A stretch of 64,000 nucleotides of DNA, from contig NZ_CP053344.1 in assembly GCF_013113715.1 (NCBI RefSeq), forward strand, positions 2,108,001-2,172,000, given 5' to 3'. The notes below the pieces were generated by a model. It was given only the letters and a program-made list of their open reading frames with translations, did no database searches and was not told the origin of the DNA. The first letter of the stretch is position 1; each line of letters opens with the position of its first letter. Made by a program: the position numbers and the translations under genes. Positions 3,839-59,628 of this stretch are shown here, piece after piece. Source of the stretch: Herbiconiux sp. SALV-R1 (lineage in GTDB: Bacteria; Actinomycetota; Actinomycetes; Actinomycetales; Microbacteriaceae).

Positions 3839-6718
<2,880 letters not shown>

Positions 6719-6725
6719 CGGTGGG

Positions 6726-7097
6726 TCACTCCCCCGTCAGCGCGGCGTACTCGGCGGCCGAGAGCAGCGCCGGGAGCTCGGTGAACTCCACCTTGAGCAG
6801 CCAGCCGGCGCCGAACGGGTCGTCGTTCACGAGCTCGGGGCTGTCTTCGACCGCGGAGTTCTTCTCCACGACGGTGCCGTCGACAGGTGCGAAGAGTTCG
6901 CCGACCGACTTGGTCGACTCGATCTCGCCCACCACCGAGCCGCCCGCCACCTCCGTACCCGCGTCGGGCAGGTCGAGGTAGACGATGTCGCCCAGCTGGG
7001 CGGCGGCATACGCGGTGATGCCGATGGTCGCGACGGAGCCGTCGACCTTCACCCACTCGTGCTCGGCGGTGTAGCGCAGTTCTTCGTGGTCGGCCAT
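6726..7097 (-). CDS. gcvH: Glycine cleavage system H protein
   Basis: Small lipoyl carrier of 123 residues that shuttles the aminomethyl and dihydrolipoyl intermediates between GcvP, GcvT and the L-protein. The lipoylated lysine is Lys 63 in [12 protein letters not shown], within the usual beta-barrel sequence ([35 protein letters not shown]). Start ATG 7097 lies one base after the gcvT stop, so translation is likely coupled. Length and motifs are complete. Confidence 0.98.
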
Positions 7098-7098
7098 G

Positions 7099-8271
7099 TC
7101 AGTCCTTCTTCCGGCGGTAGAACGGGTGGGGTGCGGTGCGGTAGGCGAGGCGCTTGCCCCGGATGTCGACGCTCAGCTCCGTGCCCGGCGCGGCGAACTC
7201 GGGCGAGACGTAGGCGAGGGCGATCGGATGCCCGAGGGTCGGCGAGAGGGCACCGCTCGTCACGACACCCACCGCTTCGGCGGAGTCGTCGGAGGCGAAG
7301 ACCTCGTACCCGGCGCGGGCCGCCCGCTTGCCCTCGGCCACGAGGCCGACGAGCACGGGAGCACCACCGGGAGCGTCGAGCGCATCAGGCGCATCGGGCG
7401 CATCGGCGAGCAGTGCCTCGCGACCCACGAACTCGCTCTTGCCGAGGTCGACCACCCGGCCGAGACCGGCCTGCCCGGGCCGGGTGTCGAGCGAGAGCTC
7501 GTGGCCATAGAGCGGCATGCCCGCCTCGAGCCGCAGGGTGTCGCGGCTGGCGAGCCCCGCCGGCACCAGCCCGAGCGGCTCGCCCGCGGCGAGCAGCGCG
7601 GTCCAGAGCGCGGGGGCCGCTGCACGCTCGAGGTAGAGCTCGAAGCCGTCCTCCCCCGTGTACCCGGTGCGGGCGACGAGAACGTCGACACCGTCGAACG
7701 AGCCGGGGGCGCTGCGGTAGTACCGAAGGGTGTCGAGACCCTCGACACGGAGGCCGGCGGTCTGCTCGAGCACCTGGCGCGACACCGGGCCCTGCACCGC
7801 GATCAGCGCGGTCGCCGCGCTTTCGTCGGCGACGCGGGCGTCGAAGCCGGCCGCGCGCTCGTCGAGCGTCTCCGCCACGGGGTCGTGGTTCGAGGCGTTG
7901 GCGACGACGAGGAACTCTGTCGCACCGAGACGGTAGACCACCACGTCGTCGACGATGCCGCCCGACTCCGCGAGCAGCAGCGAGTACTTGGCCTGGCCCT
8001 CCGCGATCGCCGAGAGCCTTCCCGCCAGGGCGTGGTCGAGCAGGGCGGCGGCGTCGGGGCCGCTCACCCGGAACTCCGCCATGTGCGAGAGGTCGAAGAG
8101 GCCGGCGGCGCTGCGCACCGCGTGGTGCTCGGCGAGATCGCTCGAGTAGCGCACCGGCATTTGCCAGCCGGCGAAGTCGGTGAAGGAGGCGCCGGCGGCG
8201 CGGTGCGTGTCGAGCAGCGGTGACTCGAGGGCGGATGCCTCGGGTGCCGCGGGGTCGGTGGAGCCGGTCAC
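7099..8271 (-). CDS. gcvT: Aminomethyltransferase, T-protein of the glycine cleavage system
   Basis: Tetrahydrofolate-dependent enzyme of 390 residues that takes the aminomethyl group from GcvH, making methylene-THF and ammonia. Characteristic stretches are [30 protein letters not shown] and [14 protein letters not shown]; the C-terminal GcvT beta-barrel domain ([13 protein letters not shown]) is present. First gene of the operon, 62 bases downstream of the riboswitch end. The N-terminus has about 15 extra residues compared with many homologues. A run of [12 protein letters not shown] (about residue 295) is coded by a short tandem repeat. Confidence 0.97.
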
Positions 8272-8333
8272 GAGTTCTCCGTTCCCGCCGGCGGAGCCGG
8301 CGATACGTGGGAGCGTGGATGCGCTTCGAGAAC

Positions 8334-8519
8334 TCCCCCTCTGTCATCGGGCCTGAGAGTTTCACCCTCCCGGGTCAGCGGGGCGGGTTTTCACCGTGGG
8401 CGAGCCGCCGTCGATGCCGCGGACTGCTTTCCAGAGTGGCCAACCGAGGCGGTACGAGGACCTGAGAGATTATCGGGGAGGATTGCTCCTTCGGTGTCGC
8501 CTGAGCGACTCTCCCGCGT
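8334..8519 (-). promoter_or_regulatory. Tandem glycine riboswitch (two aptamers) upstream of gcvTHP
   Basis: Two glycine aptamers lie in the 5' leader. The first (about 8455-8519) has the core GGGAGAG, CCGAAGGAGCAA and AATCTCTCAGG; the second (about 8334-8450) has ACTCTGGAAAGC, GGTGAAACTCTCAGG and ends in ATGACAGAGGGG. The order, the short linker and the position before gcvT match the cooperative glycine-ON switch that activates the glycine cleavage operon. The expression platform must lie in the 62 bases before gcvT; I see no obvious terminator with a T-run there, so control of translation is possible. Confidence 0.93.
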
Positions 8520-8625
8520 CGGGTTGATGGCCGGTCGATGTTCTGTTGTGGGCGGATGCGGTGCACCCGGTGGTGCGCGGATGCGAGAATCCGCAGACGA
8601 CCGGATGCGAGCATCCGATGCGCCG

Positions 8626-8631
8626 AGTGTA
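8626..8631 (-). promoter_or_regulatory. Candidate -10 box for the gcv riboswitch transcript
   Basis: TACACT fits the TANNNT -10 pattern and would start RNA about 100 bases before the first aptamer. The -35 region is weak and overlaps the end of the upstream gene. The leader between here and the aptamers holds three CGGATGCG motifs, one as an inverted pair. Confidence 0.3.
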
Positions 8632-8639
8632 GCGCGAAG

Positions 8640-9371
8640 TCACTGCCCGCCGAAGCCGCCGCCCCGACTGCGCCGCACCACGATGACGATGAGGACCGCC
8701 GCGGCGCCCGCTGCCGCCACCACGATCAGCACGATCGCGTACCAGGGAAGGGTCGCGGATGCTGCGGCCGGGTCGCCGGGGTCGACACCCGCATCGGTGG
8801 CCGCGTCGGTGCTGGGAACCGTCGTCGCCACGGAAGAGTCGTCGGTGGCCGTCGGGGTGGGCTCCGCCGCGGTCGGCGTGGGGGTCGGGGAGCCGTCGGG
8901 CGCGCCGGCCCACGGCTCGCCGCAGACGGGCGCCTGGGTGAGGCCGTCGGCGGCGTTCGCCAGCGACTGCGGCTCGTAGTCGAACTCGAACTGCCCCGAG
9001 GTGGGGTGCCCGTCGGAGGAGACGACCTGCCACAGCACCACGTAGCCGCCGGCGTCGCCGAGCGCCACCGGGCTGGTCACCTGCGCGCCGTCGAGCGCGA
9101 GGCATCCGGATTCGTAGTGCAGGCCTTCGGGGTCGACCACCTGCACCGCGAAGCCGTCGGTCGACTCGCCGAGGGCGAGGAGCGTCTCGGAGAACGCGAG
9201 GGTCACCACGCCCGGGTCGTCGACGATCGACGAGTCGGCTGCGGGGTTCGACGACACGAGGTCGTCGTGCGCCGAGGCGGAGACGGCCGGCAGCACGGCG
9301 AGCCCGACGGCCGCGACGGCCGTCACGGAGAGGAGGAGGGCACGGCGGGCGGCGGCGATCGGTGAGCTCAC
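8640..9371 (-). CDS. CopC-domain copper-binding membrane protein
   Basis: Exported protein of 243 residues. A signal peptide ends in SASA, so the mature chain begins with His 35 (HDDLVSSNPAADS), the N-terminal copper ligand of CopC proteins; a second ligand set is in WQVVSSDGHPTSGQFEF. After the CopC beta-sandwich comes a Pro/Thr-rich linker, one helix (about 212-234) and a basic tail. This is the CopC/YobA layout of actinobacteria. No CopD gene is next to it, so it may only buffer copper at the surface. GTG 9371 is chosen because GGAGG precedes it and the signal peptide fits; an upstream GTG at 9404 would overlap the desaturase stop by 4 bases. Confidence 0.85.
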   Translation of the reverse strand: MSSPIAAARRALLLSVTAVAAVGLAVLPAVSASAHDDLVSSNPAADSSIVDDPGVVTLAFSETLLALGESTDGFAVQVVDPEGLHYESGCLALDGAQVTSPVALGDAGGYVVLWQVVSSDGHPTSGQFEFDYEPQSLANAADGLTQAPVCGEPWAGAPDGSPTPTPTAAEPTPTATDDSSVATTVPSTDAATDAGVDPGDPAAASATLPWYAIVLIVVAAAGAAAVLIVIVVRRSRGGGFGGQ

Positions 9372-9400
9372 GCCTCCACGATACCCAGCGCCGACGCGGC

Positions 9401-10405
9401 TCACGCCCGCTTGACGCGGTACTGGTTCACCAGGGGGCAGTCGAAGGGGTCGGGTGCCGAGAGCCCCACGCGGCTCATGTAGGCGATCACCTGGCGGTGC
9501 GCCTCGAGCAGCGAGGTCTGGGTGTAGGGGATGTTGTGGCGGGCGCAGTACTCCTGCACGATCGGGCGCACCCGGGCCAGACTCGGGCGGGGCATGCTCG
9601 GGAAGAGGTGGTGCTCGACCTGCAGGTCGAGGCCGCCCATGAAGGCGGTCATGCCCCAGCCGCCGCGGATGCTGCGCGAGGACAGCACCTGCTTCGACAG
9701 GAAGTCGACGCGCGAACCCGCGGGGAACACCTTCATGCCGATGTGGTTGGGGGCGAAGGAGGCGCCCATGTAGAGCCCGAACACCGCGAGCTGCACGCCG
9801 ATGAAGGCGAAGGCCATGCCGAGCGGGAGGAACCAGAACACCACGGTGAGGTAGGCCACCAGTCGCAGGCCGATCGACCAGAGCTCGATCTGCCGGCCCT
9901 CCACCTTGCCGCGGCCGAGCAGCGTCTTGAACGAGAGGTAGTGCAGGTTGATGCCCTCGAGCAGCATCAGCGGGTACAGCAGCCAGCCCTGGTGGCGGGT
10001 GAGGAGCTTCAGCGGGCCCTTCGCCCGCGCGGCGTCCTGCTCGAGGAACGAGACGGTGTCGCGCTCGAGGTCGGGGTCTTTGCCGACGGTGTTCGGATTG
10101 CCGTGGTGGCGGGTGTGCTTCGACATCCACCACGAGTAGCTCATGCCCACGAAAGCGGTGGCGAGCGTGCGGCCGGCGCGGTCGTTCGCGCGGTTCGACT
10201 CGAACACCTGGCGGTGCGAGGCCTCGTGGGCGAGGAAGGCGAACTGGGTGAGGATGACGCCGAGAGCGGCGGCGATGAGCAGCTGGTACCAGGTGTCACC
10301 GAGCAGGATGAAGCCGGTCACCGCCCCGCCGAGCGCCGCCACCAGCACGCTGAAGACGGTGATGTAGAAACCTCGGCGCTTGCGCAGCAGACCGAGGTCT
10401 TTCAC
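9401..10405 (-). CDS. Membrane fatty acid desaturase (acyl-CoA/acyl-lipid type)
   Basis: Di-iron desaturase introducing a double bond into acyl chains at the membrane. The three histidine boxes are all present: HEASH, HTRHH and QVEHH, with paired membrane helices between boxes 2 and 3. From the canonical GTG at 10405 the product has 334 residues. In frame upstream, 32 further codons look coding (LSITSSSVPRATVPRTT, then HPTAAYAELLSTVKDLGLL), with no ATG/GTG/TTG before them; a CTG at 10501 has a GAGG 5 bases upstream. The true start may therefore be CTG 10501 (366 residues). The gene precedes copC on the same strand, their ends nearly touching. Confidence 0.93.
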   Translation of the reverse strand: MKDLGLLRKRRGFYITVFSVLVAALGGAVTGFILLGDTWYQLLIAAALGVILTQFAFLAHEASHRQVFESNRANDRAGRTLATAFVGMSYSWWMSKHTRHHGNPNTVGKDPDLERDTVSFLEQDAARAKGPLKLLTRHQGWLLYPLMLLEGINLHYLSFKTLLGRGKVEGRQIELWSIGLRLVAYLTVVFWFLPLGMAFAFIGVQLAVFGLYMGASFAPNHIGMKVFPAGSRVDFLSKQVLSSRSIRGGWGMTAFMGGLDLQVEHHLFPSMPRPSLARVRPIVQEYCARHNIPYTQTSLLEAHRQVIAYMSRVGLSAPDPFDCPLVNQYRVKRA

Positions 10406-10640
10406 GGTGGAGAGCAGTTCCGCGTAGGCGGCGGTGGGATGCGCCCGGCCTGTTGTGCGCGGAACCGTGGCACGGGGAACGGACGAAGAGGTGATGCTCA
10501 GGGGGGCCTCGCAGAGTCGGGATCGACTTCTCAGCCGCGGTGTGAGCAGGAGCGCTCGTCAGATGCTCCGACGGTACGTGCCGAACCTGCGTGTTGACCC
10601 GGTTGCCTTCCCGGGCGCCGTGTGCGGTGCCCCGGAACGG

Positions 10641-10678
10641 CGACGAGCCCGCACCCTGGTGGGGGTGCGGGCTCGTCG
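10641..10678 (-). terminator. Strong hairpin terminator of cspA
   Basis: Perfect 16-bp stem (10641-10656 with 10663-10678) and a 6-base loop, 14 bases after the cspA stop. There is no T-run, as is usual in G+C-rich actinobacteria. It separates cspA from the desaturase gene on the same strand. Confidence 0.8.
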
Positions 10679-10692
10679 GGAAGAGCGCGAGA

Positions 10693-10899
10693 TCAGCCGA
10701 GGGGCGTGATGTTCTCGGCCTGGAGGCCCTTGCGGCCCTGGGTCACGTCGAACTCGACGCGCTGGTTCTCTTCGAGGTTCTTGTAACCGGATCCGTTGAT
10801 TCCGGAGTGGTGGGCGAACACGTCTTCGCCGCCGTCGTCGGGGGAGATGAAGCCGAAGCCCTTTTCGGAGTTGAACCACTTCACGGTGCCAGTAGGCAT
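10693..10899 (-). CDS. cspA: Cold-shock protein, CspA family
   Basis: Single cold-shock domain of 68 residues, an OB-fold RNA and ssDNA chaperone. RNP1 (KGFGFI) and RNP2 (DVFAHH) are intact after the standard start [14 protein letters not shown]. Start ATG 10899 follows AGAGAAGATCA. The gene has its own leader and a strong terminator, so it is monocistronic. Which of several paralogues it is cannot be told here. Confidence 0.97.
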
Positions 10900-10974
10900 T
10901 GATCTTCTCTTTTCGAAATCAGCGGCCCCGCCTGCCGGGACCTACTGTCGCGGTGTACTTTCTTCCGCATTCGA

Positions 10975-11003
10975 AAAACAAGCCAACACAACAACTGTGT
11001 CAA
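10975..11003 (-). promoter_or_regulatory. Candidate cspA promoter with long leader
   Basis: A perfect TTGACA (10998-11003) is followed after 17 bases by TGTTTT (10975-10980), a poor -10. RNA from here would carry a leader of about 70 bases, as cold-shock genes often do. It is divergent from the lgt promoter. Confidence 0.4.
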
Positions 11004-11060
11004 GCATAGCGGCGCACCCTTTCGGAGGCTACTGGTTCGTCGCGGAGAGCCTCCACGCTT

Positions 11061-11066
11061 TACAAT
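11061..11066 (+). promoter_or_regulatory. -10 box giving a leaderless lgt transcript
   Basis: TACAAT ends 5 bases before the GTG start of lgt, so RNA would begin at or beside the start codon. No Shine-Dalgarno sequence precedes that GTG, which agrees with leaderless translation. Confidence 0.55.
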
Positions 11067-11071
11067 TCAGC

Positions 11072-12064
11072 GTGCCCTCCTTCTCGCCGCTCAGCATCCC
11101 GAGCCCGGATCCGGTGTTCCAGCAGTTCAACATCGGGCCGCTCACCATCCACACCTACGCTCTGTGCATCCTCGCCGGCATCATCGTCGCGATGTTCTGG
11201 GTGAACGCCCGGCTCACCAAGCGCGGCGGCGAACCCGGGGTGGTCGTCGACATCGTGCTGTGGGCCGTGCCGCTCGGCATCGTCGGGGCGCGGTTCTACC
11301 ACGTCTTCACGCACCTCGGCGACTACTTCTACGACGGCGCGAACCTCCTCAACGTCTTCGCCATCTGGGACGGCGGCAACGCCCTCTACGGCTCGCTCAT
11401 CGGCGGGGCCATCGGCGCCTACATCGGCTGCCGCTTCTCGGGCATCAGGCTCTGGTCGTTCGCCGACGCGCTCGCCCCGGCGATGCTCGCGGCGCAGGCC
11501 ATCGGGCGCCTCGGCAACTACATCAACCACGAGCTGTTCGGTCTGCCGACCACGCTCCCCTGGGGCCTCGAGATCGAGTCGACGAACAGCAAGTTCCCGG
11601 CGGGGCTCGCCGACGGCACCCTGTTCCACCCGCTGTTCCTCTACGAGATCATCTGGAACGTCGTGGGCATCGCGCTGCTGCTGCTCATCGAGCGTCGCTT
11701 CCAGCTGCGCTGGGGCAAGCTGTTCGCGCTCTACCTGGTCTGGTACGGGCTCGGTCGTTCGTGGCTCGAGGCCATCCGCATCGACCCCACGAGCGACGGT
11801 TTCCTCGGCATCCCGGCCAACGTGTGGGCCTCCTTCCTCGCCATCGCGCTCGGCATCGTGCTGTTCGTGGTGCAGTCCCGCCGTCACCCCGGCGTCGAGA
11901 ACTCGGTCTACCGTCCGGGCCGTGGGCCCCGCGTGGTGGAGCCGCGCAAGAAGAAAGGCGCGGCGGCCGGTGCGGTCGAAGGCTCCGACGCCGATGGCGC
12001 TGACAGCTCATCGGAGGAGTCGGGCGTGTGGACGGATGAGGAGCTCTCCCGCCCCTCGAAGTGA
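11072..12064 (+). CDS. lgt: Prolipoprotein diacylglyceryl transferase
   Basis: Polytopic membrane enzyme of 330 residues that moves diacylglycerol from phosphatidylglycerol to the lipobox Cys of prolipoproteins, such as those at 328-1929 and 46387-47526. The Lgt signature GRLGNYINHELFGLPT is intact, as are the N-terminal IGPLTIHTYAL and the YGLGRSWLEAIR helix. A charged 50-residue C-terminal tail rich in Lys, Ala, Ser and Glu follows the last helix. GTG 11072 is chosen from the family N-terminus and the -10 box 5 bases upstream; an in-frame extension further left would run antisense over cspA. Confidence 0.96.
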   Translation: MPSFSPLSIPSPDPVFQQFNIGPLTIHTYALCILAGIIVAMFWVNARLTKRGGEPGVVVDIVLWAVPLGIVGARFYHVFTHLGDYFYDGANLLNVFAIWDGGNALYGSLIGGAIGAYIGCRFSGIRLWSFADALAPAMLAAQAIGRLGNYINHELFGLPTTLPWGLEIESTNSKFPAGLADGTLFHPLFLYEIIWNVVGIALLLLIERRFQLRWGKLFALYLVWYGLGRSWLEAIRIDPTSDGFLGIPANVWASFLAIALGIVLFVVQSRRHPGVENSVYRPGRGPRVVEPRKKKGAAAGAVEGSDADGADSSSEESGVWTDEELSRPSK

Positions 12065-12068
12065 CCTG

Positions 12069-12911
12069 TCAGCGGGCGCCGGCGCCCGCATCCGCTTCCT
12101 CCTCGGCCCCGACCTGCTCGCGCAGCTCGGGGCTGAGGTGTTCCAGGCGACGGCGGTCGCGGATGGCGACGAAGCCGACGCACACCACCCACACCAGCCA
12201 CGGGAAGGTCGCGAGCATCGCGGTGGCGGCGCCTCCCGCCGCGAAGAACGAGTCGGGGGCCGTGCCGCCGAACATCGTCGGCACCGAGAGCAGGTTGAGG
12301 CCCGCCACGGCGTAGGCGATGTAGCCCGTCCACTTCGGCAGCGCCTCGGAGGCGATGGTGAGGTAGGCGGCGGAGGCGGCGACGAGGGCGTTCAGCGTGC
12401 ATCCGATCGAACCGAACATGAGGGTGTGACCCACCGTGAGTGCTCGGAGCGACGAGGCATCCGGGTCGAGTCCCATGGTGTCGAGGGCGGTGCCGCCCTC
12501 CATGGCGTCGCCGACCAGGGTCACGGCGATGAACAGCAGGCCCGCGCCGTACATGATGTTCGCCACCCACTGCAGATCGGGCCTCGTGTGCGTGATGAGC
12601 TGGCGGAAACCCGAGATGAAGACGATCAGCGCCGCCATGAGGAAGGTGTCGATGAGGATGGTGAACAGCGTCTGGTTGGCCGTGCGGGTCATGAACTCGG
12701 TGAGCGCGCGGTCGTCGTCGAGCGCCGGGCGGGCGCCCACCAATAGGGCCTGCACCAGGAACTCGGCGAAGGTGAGCAGGCCCACCGAGATGGCGGCGAT
12801 GCCCGTCCAGAGCCGCACGTCGGGGTTGAGCCTGCCGTTCTTCACGACGGTGATCATGTGTGCGTGGGTGTGCGAGTGCGTGTGCCCCGTGTGCGTGTGC
12901 CCCGTGTGCAT
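12069..12911 (-). CDS. Polytopic membrane protein with His-rich N-terminus, unknown function
   Basis: Protein of 280 residues with about seven predicted helices. The first 18 residues read MHTGHTHTGHTHSHTHAH, with eight His, then MITVVKNGRLNPDVRLW. The His stretch suggests binding of a divalent metal (Ni, Zn, Co or Cu), but nothing else identifies a transporter. AGGGG 8 bases before ATG 12911 supports the His-rich start over the inner ATG at 12857. The C-terminal tail is acidic. It is convergent with lgt, with 4 bases between the stops. I do not recognise a named family with confidence. Confidence 0.75.
   Translation of the reverse strand: MHTGHTHTGHTHSHTHAHMITVVKNGRLNPDVRLWTGIAAISVGLLTFAEFLVQALLVGARPALDDDRALTEFMTRTANQTLFTILIDTFLMAALIVFISGFRQLITHTRPDLQWVANIMYGAGLLFIAVTLVGDAMEGGTALDTMGLDPDASSLRALTVGHTLMFGSIGCTLNALVAASAAYLTIASEALPKWTGYIAYAVAGLNLLSVPTMFGGTAPDSFFAAGGAATAMLATFPWLVWVVCVGFVAIRDRRRLEHLSPELREQVGAEEEADAGAGAR
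12880..12909. repeat. 15-base tandem duplication coding HTGHT twice
   Basis: GTGTGCCCCGTGTGC occurs twice head to tail (12880-12894 and 12895-12909) at the very start of the His-rich protein gene; degenerate GTGTGC/GTGCG repeats continue to about 12857. It could change copy number by slippage while keeping frame. Confidence 0.8.
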
Positions 12912-50916: not shown

Positions 50917-52392
50917 TCAGCGCGACTCGGCGAGCAGCCGCACCCAGCGGTAGGAGTCTTTCGGGGTGCGGGTGAAGTCGCCGAAGTCGACGTGCACGAG
51001 ACCGAACCGCTGGCTGTATCCGGCCGCCCACTCGAAGTTGTCGAGCAGCGACCACACGTAGTAGCCGACGACCTCGAGCGAGGAGGCCGAGGAGCCCGAA
51101 CCCGCCGCCCCCACGAGCGCCTCGAGGTGCCGCGCCAGGTAGTCGATGCGCGACCCGTCGTGCACCTGCGCCTCACCGGTCTCCGGATGCAGTTCCACCG
51201 CATCCGGAAAGCTCGCCCCGTTCTCGGTGACGATCACGGGCGGCAGCAGCGAGCCGTAGCGCTCCCCCAGCTCCGCGAGCGCCGTGGCGAAGAACTCGGG
51301 CGCGATCGGCCAGCCGAAGCCGGTCCGCGGGTACTCGGGCCAGTCGGCGAGGTGGAACGGCAGCGACGCCATGGCCGACGAGGCACCGTCGGGGGTCGCC
51401 GCCGAGCCTGACCCGGCGGCGATTCGCGTCGGCATGTAGTAGTTGAGGCCGTAGAAGTCGAGCGGCTGGGCGATGAGCGCGAGGTCGGCCGGGTCGACCT
51501 CGGCGAGCGCCGTGAACAGCGCCTCGAAGCCCTCGGGCGGCTGCGGGTAGTGCCCGAGCAGCACCGGGTCGGCGAAGACCCGGTTGTGCAGCACGTCGAA
51601 GAGCGCCGCGAAGACCCCGTCGGCCTCGGCCGAGGGTCCGGAGTCGGTGGCGGGCACGACGGGCGAGTGCACGTTCACGATGCCGACCCCGCCGCGCACC
51701 CCCGCGGCCCGGAGCGCCTGCACCCCGAGGCCGTGGGCGAGGAGCTGGTGGTGCGCCGCCGGCAGCGCGTTGAACAGCCGCGCGGCTCCCGGGGCGTGCA
51801 ATCCCAGCGCGTAGCCCTCGAGAGTGACCGTCGCCGGCTCGTTGATCGTCGCCCACTGGGTCACCCGGTCGCCGAAGCGCTCCCCCATCGCGTGCGCGAA
51901 GTCGCCGAAGCGCAGCGCGGTGTCGCGCGCGAACCAGCCGCCGGCGAGCGCCGCGGGCGTGTCCCAGTGGTAGAGGGTGGCGAGCGAGCGGATGCCCGCG
52001 GTCTCGAGCTCGTCGAGCAGCCGCTCGTAGAAGTCGACGCCCTCCCGGCGCAGCGCGCCCTTGCCCTCGGGCTGCAGCCGCGGCCAGGCAAAGGAGAAGC
52101 GGTAGGAGTCGACGCCGAGGTCGCGCATGAGCGCGACGTCTTCGGGCACCCGATGGTAGTGGTCGGTGGCCCGATCGGCCGTGGCACCGCCCAGGATCCG
52201 GCCGGGCTGGGCGGTGAAGGCGTCCCACGCCGACTCGCCGCGCCCGCCCTCGCGGGTGGCCCCCTCGATCTGGAACGCGCTGGTGGCGACACCCAGGGTG
52301 AACCCCTCGGGCAGCCTCGCCCCGAGGTCGCGAGCCCGTTCGCGCCGTTCTTCGGGGCTCATCGCGCCGGGGCGCGCATCCGTGCCCGCCAT
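50917..52392 (-). CDS. Family 1 glycoside hydrolase (beta-glucosidase type)
   Basis: Retaining GH1 enzyme of 491 residues. Catalytic acid/base in WATINEPATVTLEGY and nucleophile in PVIVTENGASFPD; the opening LPEGFTLGVATSAFQIEGATREGGRGESAWDAF and YYVWSLLDNFEWAAGYSQRFGLVHVD are classic. No signal peptide, so it acts on an imported beta-glycoside. Last gene of the five-gene operon; its ATG shares one base with the stop of the oxidase gene. The sugar specificity is not readable. Confidence 0.95.
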   Translation of the reverse strand: MAGTDARPGAMSPEERRERARDLGARLPEGFTLGVATSAFQIEGATREGGRGESAWDAFTAQPGRILGGATADRATDHYHRVPEDVALMRDLGVDSYRFSFAWPRLQPEGKGALRREGVDFYERLLDELETAGIRSLATLYHWDTPAALAGGWFARDTALRFGDFAHAMGERFGDRVTQWATINEPATVTLEGYALGLHAPGAARLFNALPAAHHQLLAHGLGVQALRAAGVRGGVGIVNVHSPVVPATDSGPSAEADGVFAALFDVLHNRVFADPVLLGHYPQPPEGFEALFTALAEVDPADLALIAQPLDFYGLNYYMPTRIAAGSGSAATPDGASSAMASLPFHLADWPEYPRTGFGWPIAPEFFATALAELGERYGSLLPPVIVTENGASFPDAVELHPETGEAQVHDGSRIDYLARHLEALVGAAGSGSSASSLEVVGYYVWSLLDNFEWAAGYSQRFGLVHVDFGDFTRTPKDSYRWVRLLAESR

Positions 52393-53705
52393 CAGGCGCC
52401 CAGCACGCGGTCGAGGTAGTCGTTGGCGAACAGCCGTTCGGGGTCGAGCCTGTCGCGCAGCGCGACGAAGTCGCCGTGGCGCGGGTAGAGGGCGGCGAGC
52501 GCCGCCGCGTCTCGGGTGTGGAGCTTGCCCCAGTGCGGCCGGCCTGCGTGCGTCGTCATGATCTCCTCGACTGCTTCGAAGTACTCCTCGTGATTCTCCC
52601 TGAAGTAGCGGTGCACCGCGATGTAGCCGCTGGGTCTGCCCGAGGCGGTGGAGAGCCAGAGGTCGTCGGCGGCGGCGAAGCGCACCTCGACGGGGAACGA
52701 GATGCGCCAGCCGCGCGACTCGATGAGCCGGTCGACCTCGGCGAGCGCCTGCGGCACCCGGGCGGCCGGCAGCGCGTACTCCATCTCGCGGAACCGCACG
52801 GTGCGCTTGGTGGCGAACACCCGGTGCGACGCGTCGGAGAAGGCGCGGTCGCCCCACAGCCGCTCGGCGAGCGCGTTCACGGCGGGCACGATGGCGGGCG
52901 CCACCGAACCCGCGGCACAGGTCACCCGGTACACCCCGTTGGCCATGAAGGTGTCGTCGACGAAGCTGCGCAGCGGATGCAGCGGCCGGGTGGGCGAGGC
53001 GGAGTCGCGCCGGGTGTTGGTCTTGGTGACCGCGGTGCGCGTGCCCGGGAACCAGTAGAACTCGAAGTGGTCGCAGCCGTCGACGTGGGTGTCGAGCTCG
53101 GCCAGCACACCGTCGAGCGGCAGCGGCTTCTCCACCGCCTCGAGCACGAACGCGGGAACGCACTGCAGGGTGACCTCGACCAGGATTCCGAGCGCACCGA
53201 GCCCGAGCGCCACGGCGGGCAGCAGTTCGGGTTCGTGCTCCTCGTCGACCGTGAGCAGCTCGCCGTCGGCGGTGACCAGGGTGGCCCCCACGACCTGCGT
53301 GGAGATGCCGCCGAACCGCGCGCCGGTGCCGTGGGTTCCGGTCGAGATGGCTCCGGCGATCGACTGCCGGTCGATGTCGCCCATGTTGGTGAGCGCGAGG
53401 CCGTGGGGCTTCAGCAGCGCGGGCAGCTGGAACAGGCGGGTGCCGGCGAGCAGCGTCACCCGCGCCCGCTCGCGGTCGACGGTCACGATGCCGCTCAGTT
53501 CGTCGAGGTCGAGCAGCACGCCGGTGGCGACGGCGATCCCGGTGAAGCTGTGGCCCGCGCCCACCGCCTTGATGCGAGTGCCGGAGCGAGCCGCCCCCTT
53601 CACCGCGCGCTGCACGGCGCCGATCGTGGCGGGCCGTTCGACGCGCTCGGGCTTCACCCGCTGGGTGCGCGCCCAGTTGCGCCAGGTTCCGTTGAGGGCG
53701 GTCAC
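52392..53705 (-). CDS. D-arabinono-1,4-lactone oxidase family FAD-linked oxidase
   Basis: Flavoprotein of 437 residues of the VAO/ALO group. The PCMH-type FAD domain holds KAVGAGHSFTGIAVATG, whose His is the covalent flavin site, and IAGAISTGTHGTGARFGGIST; the C-terminal ALO domain has HFEFYWFPGT, EVRFAAADDLWLS and HAGRPHWGKLH. Related enzymes oxidise aldonolactones, alditols or sugars with oxygen or another acceptor. GTG 53705 overlaps the upstream stop by 4 bases. Confidence 0.92.
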   Translation of the reverse strand: MTALNGTWRNWARTQRVKPERVERPATIGAVQRAVKGAARSGTRIKAVGAGHSFTGIAVATGVLLDLDELSGIVTVDRERARVTLLAGTRLFQLPALLKPHGLALTNMGDIDRQSIAGAISTGTHGTGARFGGISTQVVGATLVTADGELLTVDEEHEPELLPAVALGLGALGILVEVTLQCVPAFVLEAVEKPLPLDGVLAELDTHVDGCDHFEFYWFPGTRTAVTKTNTRRDSASPTRPLHPLRSFVDDTFMANGVYRVTCAAGSVAPAIVPAVNALAERLWGDRAFSDASHRVFATKRTVRFREMEYALPAARVPQALAEVDRLIESRGWRISFPVEVRFAAADDLWLSTASGRPSGYIAVHRYFRENHEEYFEAVEEIMTTHAGRPHWGKLHTRDAAALAALYPRHGDFVALRDRLDPERLFANDYLDRVLGA

Positions 53706-54961
53706 AGGAACGCCTTCCCTTCTCCTCGGTAGGTGGGCACCACGTCGACGACCTCGCCGCCGCGCACCACGTGGAACCCGTTCACGTGCTCGGAGAGCTC
53801 GCCCGACTTGGTGTGCCGCAGCCACACCCGATCGCCGACGGCGAGGGCTGCCGCGCCCCGCCCCGACAGCGGGGTCTGCACCTCCCCCGCCATCTCGCGC
53901 GCCTGCATGCGGGTGTGCCGCGGCCAGACCACCTCGGGCAGCCGGTCGGGGCCGGGTGGGCCGGATGCGATCCACCCGCCCCCGAGGAGCGTCGCCATCT
54001 GAGGGGTGGGCTTGCGCACCACCGGCAGAGCGAAGGCCGCCGCCGGCGCGGGCCGGAAGCGCGAGTAGGTGTCGAAGAGGTGGCCGCCGAAGAGGCCGCT
54101 TCCGGCCGCGATCTCGGTGACGGAGGGGTCGCGCGAGGTCGACTCGAGCGACCCCGTGCCGCCGCCGTTGACGAACTCGAGCGGCGCGATGCGGCGCACG
54201 GCCGCGACCGCGGCCCCGCGCCGCTCGGCGAGTTCAGCGGCGGAAGCGCGCTGCATCCGCTCGATGACGCGCCCCATCACGGCGCCCTTGAGCGTGCCGC
54301 GGCCCGGGCGGTCGCCCACGCCGGCGATCTGCGACTCGTACGCCATCATGCCCACCAGCGCGTAGCCCGGGCGGGCGACCACGGCGCGCGCGAGCGCCTC
54401 GGCCTGCTCGGCGGTCGAGACGGGCGACCGCCACACACCCAGCCGGCCGAGTGCGGGCGCCGTGAACGCGGCGTCGAGCTCGAGGGCGACCCGGACGGGC
54501 GCAGCGCGGTGTGACGCCGGGGCGGCGAGGTCGATCAGATCGAGCTGCTCGACAGAGTCGATCATGAGCGTCACCCGCGCGAGCAGCCGGTCGTCGGCGG
54601 CGAGGCGGGCGATCGCGTCACGGTCGACGCTCGGGTAGCCGACCACCACGTCGTCGACGGTCTCGGCGAGCCAGAGCGCTTCGGGGAGGGTGTAGGCGAG
54701 AACCCCCGCGTACCCCGGGAGCGCGAGCAGAGCATCCTGCACCGCCCGCACCCTGATCGACTTGCTGGCCACCCGGATTGGGCGCCCGCCCGCCCGCCGC
54801 AGCATTGAGAGCGCGTTGTGCGCCATGGCCTCAGCACCGATGACGGCGAGCGGCGGGTCGAGTCGCGCCGTCGCCTCGGTGAGCGCGCGCCAGTAGCGCT
54901 GCTCGTCGCGCCAGAGCTCGGGCGCCGCCTCCGCCGCCTCGAGGTCGATCGTGATGGTCAC
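53702..54961 (-). CDS. Alanine racemase-like PLP protein ('amino acid deaminase/aldolase' family)
   Basis: Fold-type III PLP enzyme of 419 residues related to D-threonine aldolase and alanine racemase. The PLP lysine is expected in IRVASKSIRVRAVQ; VALELDAAFTAPALGRLGVWRSPV and EFVNGGGTGSLESTSRDPSVTEIAAGSGLFG are barrel positions binding the cofactor phosphate; the C-terminal domain has WPRHTRMQAREMAGEVQTPL and KSGELSEHVNGFHVV. The reaction is unknown. GTG 54961 overlaps the MFS stop by 4 bases. Confidence 0.88.
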   Translation of the reverse strand: MTITIDLEAAEAAPELWRDEQRYWRALTEATARLDPPLAVIGAEAMAHNALSMLRRAGGRPIRVASKSIRVRAVQDALLALPGYAGVLAYTLPEALWLAETVDDVVVGYPSVDRDAIARLAADDRLLARVTLMIDSVEQLDLIDLAAPASHRAAPVRVALELDAAFTAPALGRLGVWRSPVSTAEQAEALARAVVARPGYALVGMMAYESQIAGVGDRPGRGTLKGAVMGRVIERMQRASAAELAERRGAAVAAVRRIAPLEFVNGGGTGSLESTSRDPSVTEIAAGSGLFGGHLFDTYSRFRPAPAAAFALPVVRKPTPQMATLLGGGWIASGPPGPDRLPEVVWPRHTRMQAREMAGEVQTPLSGRGAAALAVGDRVWLRHTKSGELSEHVNGFHVVRGGEVVDVVPTYRGEGKAFL

Positions 54962-56310
54962 CGCACACTCCTCACCCGTGACACCGCGACGGCGCCCGCG
55001 AAACCGAACAGCGCCGACACCAGGAACAGCGCCGGGAACCCGCCCAGCCAGCTCACGACGGCCGCCCCGAGCAGCGGAGCGACGGCCTGCGGCACGGCGG
55101 TGGCGATGTTCATGATGCCGAGATCTTTGCCACGCGACGCCGGGTCGGGCAGCACCTGCGTGGCGAGCGCCTGGTCGACCGAGAGGAAGCAGCCGTAGCC
55201 GAGGCCGAGCAGCGCGGCCGCCACCATGGTGACGGTGAGCTCGGGCACGAACGCGAGCAGCAGCGCGGCGAGCGCCTGCAGCACCGCGGCCACGAGCACG
55301 AAGGCGCGGCGCCGGGCGAGCCGGTCGGAGAGGGCGCCGGCGCCGATCGAGGCGACGACGACGAACACCGTGTAGATGACGATCAGCAGCAGCAGGTCGT
55401 CTTCGGCGTTCGGGTCGTTCAGGCCGAACATGAGGAAGTAGAGCAGCAGGGTCGTGCCGAGCGCGTTGCCGATGTTCACCAGGATGCGGCTGAGCAGGGT
55501 GAAGCCGAAATCCGGATGCGCGCGCGGGCTCACCCACATGCCCTCGACGAGCGCGCGAAGGGTGAACGGCGGCCGGTCGGCGGGGTCGAGCCGGGCGTCG
55601 GGCATGGTGAGGCAGAAGGGTGCGACGAGCACGACGAGCAGCACGGCCATCGCGGTGTAGCCGAAGAACTGTCCGGTGAACAGGGTGGTGGCCAGGAGCA
55701 CGCCGAGGATGAGACCGACGGCCTGCGGCGCCGAGATGAAGCTCGACACGAAGCCGCGCTGGTTCACCGGCACCTGATCGGAGATGGCGGCGGTGAGGGC
55801 CGAGGAGAGCACGCAGAAACCAATGATGGCGAGGGTCCACCACAGGCCCACCCCGACGAGGTCGTGCTGGAGACCCAGTACGAACAGGGCGACGGCGAAG
55901 AGGGCGGCTCCCCCGGTGATCCACGGGCGGCGGCGGCCGAAGCGCGAGGTGGTGCGGTCGGAGAGAGCGCCGGTGAGCGGGAAGGCCAGGAGAGCGAAGA
56001 CGCCGGCGATGGCGGAGATGACGCCGAAGGCGATGACCGAGTCGGTCCAGTGGCCGTTCGCCGTGGAGAGGCTGAGGCGCTCTTCGATCTGCACCGGGAG
56101 GAGAAGCTGCACCGGGGTGAGCTGGGCCATCCAGATGCCGAGCCAGGCGGTGCCGAACAGCGCGATCCAGGCGCCGCCGACGCGGCGCACTGGCTCGGCG
56201 AGGGCGGGCGGGGCTGCTGCCGGGGCCGCGGCAGCTTCGGCAGCCGCTGCAGCGGGAGACCCCTGCGCGGGCTTCCGCGCTCCGGACCCGGTCGGCTCCG
56301 TGGCGCTCAT
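54958..56310 (-). CDS. MFS transporter (sugar/GPH-like)
   Basis: Twelve-helix permease of 450 residues after an Ala/Pro-rich 45-residue start. MFS motif A appears as GALSDRTTSRFGRRRPWI between helices 2 and 3 and again as GALSDRLARRRAFV between 8 and 9. The RFGRRRPW pattern is common in sugar and sucrose-type carriers. It probably imports the glycoside hydrolysed by the GH1 enzyme. ATG 56310 overlaps the tetR stop by 4 bases. Confidence 0.92.
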   Translation of the reverse strand: MSATEPTGSGARKPAQGSPAAAAAEAAAAPAAAPPALAEPVRRVGGAWIALFGTAWLGIWMAQLTPVQLLLPVQIEERLSLSTANGHWTDSVIAFGVISAIAGVFALLAFPLTGALSDRTTSRFGRRRPWITGGAALFAVALFVLGLQHDLVGVGLWWTLAIIGFCVLSSALTAAISDQVPVNQRGFVSSFISAPQAVGLILGVLLATTLFTGQFFGYTAMAVLLVVLVAPFCLTMPDARLDPADRPPFTLRALVEGMWVSPRAHPDFGFTLLSRILVNIGNALGTTLLLYFLMFGLNDPNAEDDLLLLIVIYTVFVVVASIGAGALSDRLARRRAFVLVAAVLQALAALLLAFVPELTVTMVAAALLGLGYGCFLSVDQALATQVLPDPASRGKDLGIMNIATAVPQAVAPLLGAAVVSWLGGFPALFLVSALFGFAGAVAVSRVRSVR

Positions 56311-56951
56311 CGGGCCACTCCGATCGCGGGAGCGGCGGCCGCGCTGTCCCGCACGGGCGCGGGTGCCGCCTCGGCGGCGAGGGCGCGGGCGGCGAAGGAG
56401 AGGGTGGTGAGGGCGCGGGTGTCGTCACCGTCGGCGAGCCAGGCGAGGGTGACGCCGTCGGTGAGGGCGACGAGCCACCCGGCCACGTCGTCGAGGGGTG
56501 CCCTCCAGCGTGCTCCGGAGCGGGTGGCCGCCTCCTCGAGCGAGCGGCGGGCGAGCTCGCGGTAGCGCTCATACTGCCGCTCGGCCACGGGGGCGAGGCC
56601 CGGGGTGCGCAGCGCATACTGGGTGAGCTCGAACATGGCGCGTTCTCGGGCCGGATCGCGGCGCACCCCGTCGAAGTAGCGGATGAGGCCGTCGTGCAGC
56701 ACCGTGCCGAGCGGGCTGCCCGGCGCGGCGTCGACGTCGAGCACCTCCTGCTGGGTGTCGAGCACGGCGTCGACGAGCTCGGCGAGCAGCTCCTCCCGCG
56801 AGGTGAAGGCGTAGTGGAAGCTGGCGAGCTTCATGCCCGCCTCCTCCACCACCGCCCGCGTGGTCGCCCCCGAGACGCCCGAGCGGGCGATCACGGTGAA
56901 CGCGGCCTCGAGCAGTCGCGCTCGACGTTCGGCGACGGGGAGTCGTGCCAT
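56307..56951 (-). CDS. TetR family transcriptional regulator
   Basis: Regulator of 214 residues: N-terminal HTH (ERRARLLEAAFTVIARSGVSGATTRAVVEEAGMKLASFHYAFTSREELL), then an all-helical ligand domain and a low-complexity Ala-rich tail. First gene of the five-gene operon, with AGGAGG before ATG 56951. Likely represses its own operon from sites in the gap to 57130. Confidence 0.95.
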   Translation of the reverse strand: MARLPVAERRARLLEAAFTVIARSGVSGATTRAVVEEAGMKLASFHYAFTSREELLAELVDAVLDTQQEVLDVDAAPGSPLGTVLHDGLIRYFDGVRRDPARERAMFELTQYALRTPGLAPVAERQYERYRELARRSLEEAATRSGARWRAPLDDVAGWLVALTDGVTLAWLADGDDTRALTTLSFAARALAAEAAPAPVRDSAAAAPAIGVAR

Positions 56952-57006
56952 GCTGCCTCCTCGGTCTCGGTGAGGTGGTGCGGGTGTCGAACGAAAAGTG
57001 GGACGT

Positions 57007-57056
57007 CTGACCCAGTTGCGTCAGTATGGCGCATTGGTGCCCGTCTTGTACACGGG
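57007..57056. promoter_or_regulatory. Candidate TetR-type operators in the divergent gap
   Basis: Two inverted pairs: CTGAC (57007-57011) with GTCAG (57020-57024), and CCCGT (57040-57044) with ACGGG (57052-57056). They lie between tetR and the divergent large gene, and could serve both. Confidence 0.35.
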
Positions 57057-57129: not shown

Positions 57130-59628
57130 GTGTCTGAGTCGCGGAACGAGTGGGGTCGAACGCCGTCGCTGCCGAGCGACGGTGCGACGGGTCGTTCCCG
57201 GGGCCGGGCGGGAGCCCGCACCCGCACGCTCGCGGCGACCGCCACGGGCATCGCGCTGGGCGCGCTGCTGCTCGTCGGAGGGGGGCTCGGCGCCACCTCC
57301 GCCGCGGCGACCGTTGCACCCGCCGCCTCCGTCGAGCCCACGACCACGCCCGCCCCCGCCGCAGCAACGGAGTCGCCGGCACCGACCGAGTCGCCGACAC
57401 CCGCACCCGCGCCCACCGAAGCACCGCGGCCCGTCGAGTCGCCCCCGCCCAGCACGCCGCCCACCGATCCGGGCACCCCCACCCCGCCGCCGGCCGACGC
57501 CGTTCCTCCCGTCATCGACTCGCCCGCCGCCGGCGAGCTGCTCGACGGATCGGTGCGGGCCTCGGGCGAGGCGACTCCGGGCGCGACCGTGCAGGTGGTC
57601 CTCGCCGGAGCATCCGAACCGTTCTGCATCGTCGACGTTCCCGCCTCGGGCTCCTGGTCGTGCGACATCGACGGGCTCGAGAGCAGCAGCTCGACGACGC
57701 TGCGGGCCGTCGAGCTCGCCGGCACGTCGACCGCCGAGTCGCGCGTGCAGGTGCGCGTGCTCACGGCACCCGTGGTCGCCGGCGGTCCGCGCGGGCCGCT
57801 CACCAACGCGGTGGTGCTCGGCACCGCGCATCCGGGAGCGCTCGTCACCGCCACCACGGGAGAGTTCGCCTGCGACGCCACCGCCGATGCCTCCGGTGCC
57901 TGGAGCTGCCCGCTCGACCCGGCCATCACCGACGGCCCCTACTCGGTGACCGCCACCCAGAGCACCTCGTGGAGCGACGGCGCCTCCTCGCCCCGCAGTT
58001 CCGCCGTCGACATCGAGGTCGACGTCACCGTGCCCGCCGCTCCGGTGGTGCTCGCGCCTGTCGCCGACGATCGTCTCCCGGTCACCGGCGGCGTGTTCTC
58101 GGGAACGGGCGAGACCGGCGCCACCGTGTCGGTGTTCGCCGGGGCCGGGGTGCTCTGCGAGTCAGCCGTAGTCGACTCCCGCTGGTCGTGCACCGGAGCG
58201 CCCGCCGCGCCCGGGCGCTACCCCGTTGCGGTGCTGCAGCAGGATGCGGCGGGCAACGTGAGCGTGCAGTCACGCGTCCTCGCCGTGGTCTTCGGCGACC
58301 GGGCCGCGACGTCGACCCCGCGGCCCACGCCGGGGGCGACCGCGTCGCCACGCCCGACCAAGGGCGCCTCCCCTGCCGCCCCCGCGCCGTCCTCCGGCGA
58401 CGACGGCGCGGCGCAGAGCCCGCCCGACGGCTCGTCGCCCGGCACGCCCGGGAGCGGAGACGACGGCGGGGGCGCGGGCGGTGACGACGGCGGTCCCGGC
58501 GGTCAGGCTCCGAGCGGCGCCTCCCCGAACGGGTCGACGAGCTGGGCCGACGGCACCCGGTTCACCACCGCCCTCCAGCCCGTGCTCGCCTCCGGCGCGT
58601 GGTGGGTGGCGCTCGTCGTGGCGGCCCTCGTGCTGCTGCTCGTAGCGCTCCCCACGCGCCTGCTGGCCGGCACCGTCGGCGCCCTCACCGCGCCGGGCAT
58701 CGCGCCCGGCACCGACGGCCTCCCCCGACGACGGATGCTCGCCCGGCTCACCGGCCGCAACCGCACGCGCCTGCAGGAGTACGAGCGCGGGCCCCAACTC
58801 GCGCTCGGCCGGCCGGCACGCGCCGCCCTCGCCTTCGCCGCCTCGGCCGCTCTGATCACCCTCTCGGCACCCGTCTTCGGCGAACCCGCCTATCTCCGTC
58901 TGCTCCTCGCGGCCATCGCGGCCGTGGCCCTGCTCAACGCGGCCGCGACGATCCTCCCCGCCGTCGCGGCACGGCGCTTCCTCGGTATCGAGTCACGAGC
59001 GCGCCTCGAGCCGAGGTTGCTCCTCGTCACCGCGGGGTTCGCCCTGGTCTCCCGGCTCGCCGACCTCGAACCCGCCCTCGTGTTCGGTCTCGTCGCCGCA
59101 CTCGTCGTCGCAGCGCCGGCAGGTCGCGCGGTGAAGGGGAAGCTCGCGGCGCTCCAGGTGGGCACGTTGCTGGTCGTGGGGGCGGTGGCGTGGGTGCTGA
59201 GCTCCGCCCTGGGCGGAGCTGGCGGCGACGCCGCGGCGGGCGACCCTGCAGCCGGCGCGCTCGGTGTCGCCGCCGCCGCGGCGTCGGAGTTCGCGACCAT
59301 CGTGGTGCTCGGAGCCTTCGGTGCAGCATCCGTCTCACTGCTCCCCTTCGGCGGTTCGGCCGGGCGGCGCATCCTCGACTGGTCGCCGCTCGTCTGGGTC
59401 GCGCTCACCCTGGCCGCCTTCGGCGGGTTGGCCCTCGCCTTCGCACCCGCGCTCGTGGCGAGCGCGCAGGCGGGCGGCCTGGCCGGGCCCGTCGCGGCGG
59501 TGGTCGGCTTCGCTGTGGTGAGCGTCTCGGCCTGGGCGTGGGCGCGCTTCGTCGCGCCCGAGGCGGAGACCGAAACGGAGCCCGAGCCCGGGGCGGGCGT
59601 GCACACGCACGACGGGAACGGGCGATGA
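57130..59628 (+). CDS. Large surface protein: Ig-like repeats fused to a polytopic membrane domain
   Basis: Protein of 832 residues. A hydrophobic segment (about 34-62) is followed by a Pro/Thr/Ala-rich stalk, three bacterial Ig-like repeats of about 90 residues starting near 128, 218 and 300 (PVIDSPAAGELLDGSVRASG, APVVAGGPRGPLTNAVVLG, APVVLAPVADDRLPVTGG), each with a Cys pair, then a Gly/Asp/Pro-rich linker and about eight helices (from about 490). The membrane part resembles the actinobacterial FGLLP-motif family (SRLADLEPALVFGLVAAL). Role unknown; adhesion or surface sensing are options. The GTG start overlaps its GGGGGAG. Confidence 0.8.
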   Translation: MSESRNEWGRTPSLPSDGATGRSRGRAGARTRTLAATATGIALGALLLVGGGLGATSAAATVAPAASVEPTTTPAPAAATESPAPTESPTPAPAPTEAPRPVESPPPSTPPTDPGTPTPPPADAVPPVIDSPAAGELLDGSVRASGEATPGATVQVVLAGASEPFCIVDVPASGSWSCDIDGLESSSSTTLRAVELAGTSTAESRVQVRVLTAPVVAGGPRGPLTNAVVLGTAHPGALVTATTGEFACDATADASGAWSCPLDPAITDGPYSVTATQSTSWSDGASSPRSSAVDIEVDVTVPAAPVVLAPVADDRLPVTGGVFSGTGETGATVSVFAGAGVLCESAVVDSRWSCTGAPAAPGRYPVAVLQQDAAGNVSVQSRVLAVVFGDRAATSTPRPTPGATASPRPTKGASPAAPAPSSGDDGAAQSPPDGSSPGTPGSGDDGGGAGGDDGGPGGQAPSGASPNGSTSWADGTRFTTALQPVLASGAWWVALVVAALVLLLVALPTRLLAGTVGALTAPGIAPGTDGLPRRRMLARLTGRNRTRLQEYERGPQLALGRPARAALAFAASAALITLSAPVFGEPAYLRLLLAAIAAVALLNAAATILPAVAARRFLGIESRARLEPRLLLVTAGFALVSRLADLEPALVFGLVAALVVAAPAGRAVKGKLAALQVGTLLVVGAVAWVLSSALGGAGGDAAAGDPAAGALGVAAAAASEFATIVVLGAFGAASVSLLPFGGSAGRRILDWSPLVWVALTLAAFGGLALAFAPALVASAQAGGLAGPVAAVVGFAVVSVSAWAWARFVAPEAETETEPEPGAGVHTHDGNGR

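What the first reader, a model, noticed from the sequence alone, without database searches (positions are those of the whole stretch)
50917..56951. Five-gene overlapping operon: TetR, MFS, PLP aldolase/racemase-like, lactone oxidase, GH1
Every junction overlaps (56307-56310, 54958-54961, 53702-53705 by 4 bases; 52392 by 1), so the five proteins are made as one coupled set. The combination fits no standard pathway I know: a GH1 enzyme frees a sugar from an imported glycoside, an ALO-type flavoenzyme oxidises a sugar or lactone, and a fold-type III PLP enzyme acts on an amino acid. One reading is breakdown of an amino-sugar or amino-acid glycoside, with ALO making a ketone or lactone; another is detoxification of a plant glucoside.
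Basis: partly seen in the sequence, partly recalled or inferred. Interest (0 to 1): 0.72.

Follow-up and report, generated by a model that had tools for sequence, protein, structure and literature searches.

The report
Linked oxidase and PLP enzyme pair
A soil bacterium's sugar-type operon carries two uncharacterised enzymes, a sugar-oxidase-like flavoprotein and a vitamin-B6 enzyme, that occur together in most sampled actinobacteria that have either one, which points to an unrecognised shared pathway that probably also exists in mycobacteria.

Summary
The five overlapping genes are real, in a Herbiconiux-like genome. In 43 related loci the PLP gene is followed by ALO in 42 (the other contig ends), but MFS is present in 32, TetR in 31, GH1 in 26, all five in 19. 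The core is the PLP-ALO pair. Across 246 actinomycete genomes both occur in 130, neither in 104, PLP alone in 5, ALO alone in 7 (phi 0.90; two yardstick families 0.42 and 0.27). They lie within 5 kb in 51 of 130, in 15 of 19 families, in three arrangements. In 5 of 5 PLP-only genomes the PLP-binding lysine is alanine; in 3 of 7 ALO-only genomes the HWxK lysine is lost. The PLP protein has the D-threonine-aldolase fold without the HxC metal motif; ALO is not the AldO orthologue. A palindrome precedes TetR in 28 of 31 loci. Best reading: two steps on one polyhydroxylated amino compound, TetR-switched here with a transporter and sometimes a beta-glucosidase. Substrate and step order are unproven. 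Mycobacteria carry PLP-M28-ALO, apparently Rv1769-Rv1771.

The parts
56307..56951 (-). TetR-family regulator (214 aa), first gene of the operon
   Evidence: TetR_N, TetR_C_6; GGAGG before ATG; relative upstream of PLP in 31 of 43 loci
54958..56310 (-). MFS transporter (450 aa as listed; start uncertain), MFS_1/MFS_2
   Evidence: 32 of 43 loci; relative (44-45% identity) directly beside a second PLP copy in a genome of family f22
53702..54961 (-). Fold-type III PLP enzyme (419 aa), D-threonine-aldolase-like, without the HxC metal motif
52392..53705 (-). ALO-type flavoenzyme (437 aa, TIGR01679 type); His52 at the covalent-FAD position, Gly109 at the gatekeeper position, E340/R342, HWGK
50917..52392 (-). 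GH1 beta-glucosidase-like enzyme (491 aa), accessory
   Evidence: motifs FQIEGA, YHWD, TINEP, VTENGA, SLLDNFEW; 26 of 43 loci
56999..57014 (-). Predicted TetR operator TGGGTCAGACGTCCCA (2 mismatches to TGGGTCANNTGACCCA)
   Evidence: a site within 120 bp upstream of TetR in 28 of 31 loci with a called TetR
57023..57028 (-). Possible -10 element CATACT just upstream of the operator (weak, read by eye)
   Evidence: sequence; the consensus scan did not list it

Best explanation
The operon is a TetR-switched version of an old actinomycete two-enzyme module. An ALO-type flavoenzyme (predicted covalent FAD) and a fold-type III PLP lyase or aldolase act one after the other on the same polyhydroxylated amino compound, such as an amino sugar acid or a beta-hydroxy amino acid. 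The likeliest chemistry is oxidation of a CH-OH (or aldehyde hydrate) by ALO with transfer to O2 or another acceptor, and PLP-dependent carbon-carbon cleavage or deamination at C2. In Microbacteriaceae the pair is often joined by an MFS carrier and, in some genera, by a GH1 beta-glucosidase that would free the compound from a glycoside; TetR represses the operon from a palindrome near the promoter until a ligand is present. Shown by computation: the pairing, the co-absence and active-site decay, and the conserved palindrome. Inferred: the shared substrate, its class, the order of the two steps, import rather than export, and TetR repression.
For: Co-occurrence 130 both / 5 / 7 / 104 neither of 246 genomes, phi 0.90, against 0.42 for the AldO paralogue and 0.27 for the MFS. 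Families f1, f10, f21, f22 and f32 each hold genomes with both and genomes with neither. Proximity under 5 kb in 51 of 130, in 15 of 19 families: 33 PLP then ALO, 2 ALO then PLP, 16 divergent. In 5 of 5 PLP-only genomes Lys67 is Ala, while the 130 other PLP proteins aligned keep Lys; these 5 genomes hold no full ALO match, only partial ones or none at E<=1e-20. In 3 of 7 ALO-only genomes HWGK is HWGS/HWGT. ALO His52, Gly109, E340 and R342 in 89 of 89. Palindrome in 28 of 31. Sugar-type neighbours: aldose 1-epimerase downstream of PLP in f27 loci; SMP-30 lactonase, SDR and MFS around a second PLP copy in f22. Amino-acid-type neighbours: gcvT; gcvT-gcvH-sdaA, PurU-like and SerB-like genes.
Against: No substrate is known and the neighbours do not agree on one: also M28 peptidase, adenosine deaminase family, xanthine/uracil permease, P450, polyprenyl synthetase. 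Many neighbours are lineage synteny, so each is one event. The active-site losses lie in one family (f23) and one genus (g41), so they may be as few as two evolutionary events; four of seven ALO-only genomes keep all residues checked. Lys67 was not read in about a third of the 135 PLP genomes. Fisher's p value ignores phylogeny and the yardstick families are only two. 79 of 130 genomes keep the genes apart or on different contigs. Absence of the metal motif makes D-threonine-aldolase chemistry uncertain.
Confidence: 0.6

Rival explanations
1. One reading: a dedicated five-gene pathway that imports and breaks down a (plant) amino-sugar or amino-acid beta-glycoside, with GH1, ALO and PLP as successive steps.
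For: All five genes overlap and share an upstream palindrome; 19 of 43 loci keep all five; GH1 catalytic motifs are intact.
Against: GH1 is missing in 16 of 42 loci that continue past PLP while PLP-ALO stays; PLP and ALO are widespread in the class, where the window's MFS family is in 49 of 246 genomes. The GH1 is of ordinary beta-glucosidase type.
Confidence: 0.17
2. Metabolite repair or detoxification: the pair disposes of a toxic by-product such as a reactive hydroxy-aldehyde or a non-canonical D-amino acid, which would explain conservation in many lifestyles; the MFS would be an exporter.
For: One full copy in most genomes that have it; TetR plus MFS is a common efflux arrangement (general knowledge); serine, glycine and one-carbon genes near PLP in several lineages.
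Against: GH1, aldose-epimerase and lactonase neighbours suggest sugar use.
Confidence: 0.17
3. Ascorbate-like lactone metabolism: ALO is an L-gulonolactone dehydrogenase as reported for M. tuberculosis Rv1771, and the PLP enzyme has an unrelated job.
For: Gene order PE-PLP-M28-ALO in a Mycobacterium; the review PMC11505616 reports activity of the M. tuberculosis enzyme on gulonolactone (passages and its Table 1).
Against: Tight co-occurrence with PLP and decay when the partner is absent; the activity listed there is poor (Km 5.5 mM, Vmax 0.041 umol/min/mg) and the recombinant protein lacked flavin.
Confidence: 0.04
4. No functional link: the genes stay together only because Microbacteriaceae gene order is conserved (LemA and M48 genes downstream are conserved too).
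For: LemA and M48 neighbours are found in 41 of 44 loci including the window.
Against: The association recurs in other families in other contexts and orientations, as co-occurrence without linkage, and with active-site decay when the partner is absent.
Confidence: 0.02

Closest known systems
Mycobacterium Rv1769-Rv1770-Rv1771 block (inside RD14), with Rv1771 = L-gulono-1,4-lactone dehydrogenase
   Same: The M. riyadhense plasmid has PE gene, PLP, M28, ALO, which fits the order PE_PGRS31 (Rv1768), Rv1769, Rv1770, Rv1771 listed in PMC6497762 (passage); Rv1769 was inferred to be a putative aldehyde-lyase from 4v15 in PMC8562490 (passage); 4v15 is a D-threonine aldolase.
   Different: An M28 peptidase lies between PLP and ALO; no TetR, MFS or GH1 next to them. 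M. tuberculosis sequences themselves were not compared here.
D-threonine aldolase / D-3-hydroxyaspartate aldolase (BhcC) / D-serine dehydratase, fold-type III
   Same: Fold (6qkb TM-score 0.75/0.81), Lys67 at the PLP-lysine position, GGGTGS loop.
   Different: About 20% identity; HxC metal motif replaced by near-invariant RHxKxGE; no PF14031 match.
Alditol (xylitol) oxidase AldO, 2vfr
   Same: GHSF histidine, E-x-R and HWGK motifs.
   Different: Not the orthologue: L051 in the same genome scores 375.9 bits to 2vfr against 134.1 for this ALO; this clade scores at least as high to galactonolactone dehydrogenase.
GH1 beta-glucosidase (TIGR03356)
   Same: Near full-length match, 478.4 bits, and intact acid/base, nucleophile and glucose-site motifs.
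   Different: 0.1 bit under the curated cutoff; substrate untested.

Membership tests
Metal-dependent D-threonine aldolase / D-serine dehydratase family | Fold-type III barrel with PLP lysine | tested here: met
   AlphaFold model pLDDT 90.8, TM-score 0.75/0.81 to 6qkb; Lys67 aligned to the family lysine
Metal-dependent D-threonine aldolase / D-serine dehydratase family | C-terminal HxC (or HxD) metal-ligand motif, PF14031 domain | tested here: not met
   No PF14031 match; hhalign puts RHTKSGE against the PNHxC region of 7 DTA-like proteins, with a two-residue ambiguity; R382, K385, G387 and E388 in 133 of 134, H383 in 131 of 134. Ligand roles recalled
TIGR01679 bacterial FAD-linked oxidoreductase (GulDH-type) | Score above curated cutoff | tested here: met
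   423.8 against 292.25 bits
TIGR01679 bacterial FAD-linked oxidoreductase (GulDH-type) | Covalent-FAD histidine and HWxK motif | tested here: met
   H52, H391 and W392 in 89 of 89, K394 in 88 of 89; actual covalent binding not tested
L-gulonolactone dehydrogenase/oxidase | Activity on gulonolactone | not testable with these tools
   needs enzyme assay
Alditol oxidase AldO | Orthology to 2vfr | tested here: not met
   The genome's closest relative of AldO is L051 (375.9 bits) against 134.1 bits for this protein
GH1 beta-glucosidase | Catalytic Glu pair and -1 site motifs | tested here: met
   TINEP at 182, VTENGA at 388, SLLDNFEW at 448
TetR autoregulator | Palindromic operator in its own promoter region | tested here: inconclusive
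   Conserved palindrome in 28 of 31 loci; binding not tested

The most novel reading that the evidence does not exclude
PLP and ALO are the two obligatory enzymes of an undescribed pathway present in about half of actinomycete species, including mycobacteria. The enzyme filed there as a vitamin C dehydrogenase would then be one half of this pathway rather than an ascorbate enzyme, and the PLP partner a subclass of the D-threonine-aldolase fold that works without the usual metal site.
Probability: 0.45. Interest if true: 0.75.

Novelty: new variant of a known kind. Interest (0 to 1): 0.58.

Why it matters
Two widely annotated but unassigned actinomycete genes ('amino acid deaminase/aldolase' or 'alanine racemase', and 'D-arabinono-1,4-lactone oxidase', as named) appear to depend on each other. 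That turns two orphan enzymes into one testable pathway, questions the ascorbate label given to the mycobacterial homologue, and gives a compact operon with a predicted operator in a plant- and soil-associated genus in which to find the substrate.

Tried and rejected
Five-gene obligatory pathway: set aside because GH1, MFS and TetR come and go. Alditol-oxidase identity for ALO: rejected. Use of neighbouring genes to name the substrate: neighbours fall into sugar, nucleoside and serine/glycine/one-carbon themes that differ by lineage; no single answer. MFS as an obligatory third partner: rejected for the window's MFS (phi 0.27); the MFS beside ALO in other genomes shows no meaningful similarity to it. 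Simple inverted-repeat search upstream of TetR found nothing; the palindrome appeared only from comparing relatives, and a whole-genome pattern count is near its control (9 against 7 sites per strand), so the pattern alone is not specific. D-glucosaminate dehydratase as a model was recalled; the paper search found none. Literature on a PLP-ALO pair: none found (open-access full text only; one search returned one unrelated listing). Superposition of the metal site on solved structures was not possible with these tools.
Full report
Observation. The five minus-strand ORFs and their overlaps are as described. The MFS start is uncertain: the codon model preferred 56190. Pfam and NCBIfam give TetR, MFS_1, Ala_racemase_N, FAD_binding_4+ALO (TIGR01679 above its cutoff) and GH1. 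The window lies in a 4.52 Mb genome; the closest named PLP matches are Herbiconiux. PLP has one copy in the genome. ALO has two full-length relatives there at 34-35% identity, and GH1 has two higher-scoring paralogues.

Local conservation. One genome-contig scan with exact peptide patterns, hence biased to close relatives, gave 43 loci, by their titles nearly all from genera that I know as Microbacteriaceae. By tblastn with the window proteins: ALO directly downstream of PLP in 42 of 43 (L018 ends there), MFS upstream in 32, TetR upstream in 31, GH1 downstream in 26, all five in 19 (recounted). L015 is cut before TetR. The PLP/ALO 4-base overlap is seen in 23 of the 42. LemA and M48 genes downstream are also conserved (41 of 44 including the window), so local order alone could be inherited synteny.

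Class-wide test. The same 246 genomes were searched with PLP (A1, E<=1e-30) and ALO (A2, E<=1e-80): 130 both, 5 PLP only, 7 ALO only, 104 neither; phi 0.90. In these searches the tool scored at most 7 first-look candidates per genome; the 12 discordant genomes were searched again with all candidates scored and kept their status, apart from a C-terminal PLP fragment in G129. Two further families give a yardstick: the AldO paralogue L051 (107 genomes, phi 0.42 with PLP, 0.34 with ALO) and the window's MFS (49 genomes, phi 0.27 with PLP). Thresholds were chosen by hand, the yardsticks are only two, and Fisher's p (1e-53) ignores phylogeny. Families f1, f10, f21, f22 and f32 each contain genomes with both genes and genomes with neither. 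In 51 of 130 genomes the genes lie within 5 kb, in 15 of 19 families: 33 PLP then ALO, 2 ALO then PLP, 16 divergent. In the rest they are further apart or on other contigs; f20, f22, f23 and f31 have none close.

Partner absence and decay. The PLP-binding lysine (Lys67) is kept in 130 of 134 aligned proteins (85 of the 90 class loci fetched, 41 of the 43 named loci, 7 plasmid records and the window; rows shorter than about 360 aa or not called were left out). The four exceptions (Ala) are G016, G077, G166 and G184, all PLP-only genomes. The fifth PLP-only genome, G149, fetched afterwards, also has Ala, so 5 of 5. About a third of the 135 PLP genomes were not read at this position. At E<=1e-20 these five genomes show only partial ALO matches, in four of them at the place of the AldO paralogue (two also have a second weak one), and none in G149. 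Among ALO-only genomes, G031, G120 and G129 have lost the HWGK lysine; G012, G053, G064 and G066 keep it. All five PLP cases are in family f23 and the three ALO cases in genus g41, so this may be as few as two events.

The enzymes. PLP: closest solved relatives are D-3-hydroxyaspartate aldolase 6qkb, D-threonine aldolases, D-threo-3-hydroxyaspartate dehydratase and D-serine dehydratase; the AlphaFold model (pLDDT 90.8) matches 6qkb best. The C-terminal metal motif HxC is absent: profile alignment with seven DTA-like proteins from relatives places RHTKSGE there, with a two-residue ambiguity, and R-H-x-K-x-G-E is nearly invariant. So fold membership is met and the metal-dependent family is not. 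ALO: His52 (the covalent-FAD position in AldO; recalled), Gly109 (gatekeeper position; 8qnc A113G has Gly and 8qnr Ala at the aligned place), E340 and R342 in 89 of 89 (the rows are ALO proteins called in fetched loci, not all 137 genomes). The review PMC11505616 (passages) says glycine or proline mark oxidases, with exceptions, and that M. tuberculosis GLDH has glycine without oxidase activity, its recombinant form lacking flavin; so oxygen use is a prediction only. The AldO paralogue L051 also has Gly there and L052 Ala. GH1 has intact motifs.

Regulation. A palindrome TGGGTCANNTGACCCA, with at most 3 mismatches, lies within 120 bp upstream of TetR in 28 of 31 loci with a called TetR (30 relatives and the window; misses L025, L028, L046; in 8 of the 28 the best site has 3 mismatches). 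Elsewhere in the same loci there are 22 such sites in 884,982 bases, about 0.003 per 120 bp; one mononucleotide shuffle gave 34 in 888,702. The consensus was read from some of these loci, so the test is partly circular.

Neighbours. Mycobacterium riyadhense: PE gene, PLP, M28, ALO; G063 also PLP-M28-ALO. Tsukamurella: AraC, PLP, ALO, xanthine/uracil-type permease, gcvT. Two Burkholderia records: PLP, ALO, then an MFS-like gene (MFS scanned in one, 32.2 bits against a 33.4 cutoff). Nonomuraea and Nocardia plasmid records have PLP without ALO nearby. L166: adenosine-deaminase family, ALO, PLP. Family f22 (G174, second copy): SMP-30 lactonase, SDR, PLP, MFS. f27: PLP, weakly kinase-like gene, aldose 1-epimerase. 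f20: PurU-like gene divergent, or gcvT-gcvH-sdaA a few genes away; f23: SerB-like gene nearby. An MFS of another family sits directly upstream of ALO in 16 of 38 loci with a called ALO, of 40 fetched mostly where ALO is away from PLP.

Literature. Passages read: PMC8562490, PMC11505616, PMC6497762, PMC3987877, PMC2877710. They list Rv1769-Rv1771 inside RD14, a region absent from BCG Pasteur, Rv1769 as putative aldehyde-lyase by literature and structural inference, and Rv1771 as gulonolactone dehydrogenase. No paper describing a PLP-ALO pair was found (open-access full text only).

Verdict. The overlap observation is ordinary; the PLP-ALO pairing behind it is not. Functional dependence of the two enzymes is well supported; the substrate, the order of steps and the role of GH1 are not.

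Noticed in passing
G000:C1:3505141-3506415 and 3738357-3739586 (L051, L052): Two further ALO-type flavoenzymes in the same genome; L051 is the closest relative of AldO (xylitol oxidase). An operator-like site with 2 mismatches (G000:C1:3738045-3738060) lies about 300 bp upstream of L052, possibly by chance.
   Followed up: partly
L177 (G174, family f22), 4972-12520: A second PLP copy lies in a cluster with SMP-30 lactonase, SDR, MFS, P450, ferredoxin-reductase-like and 2Fe-2S ferredoxin genes.
   Followed up: partly
L101 (G157), around 7247-8254: A similar SDR-PLP-MFS cluster looks degraded: the PLP copy has one in-frame TGA and the MFS match is short.
   Followed up: no
f23 and f27 loci, gene cluster c12 downstream of PLP (e.g. 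L121:8165-8746, L096:3825-4409): A weakly P-loop-kinase-like gene directly follows PLP in loci of two families.
   Followed up: no
window 57130-59628 (+): Divergent gene encodes an 832-aa protein with bacterial Ig-like domains; a relative (cluster 9) is found in 22 of 44 loci.
   Followed up: no
G084:C1:982460-983749 (L149): PLP gene matched in two pieces, possibly a broken or frameshifted copy although a full-length ALO lies nearby.
   Followed up: no
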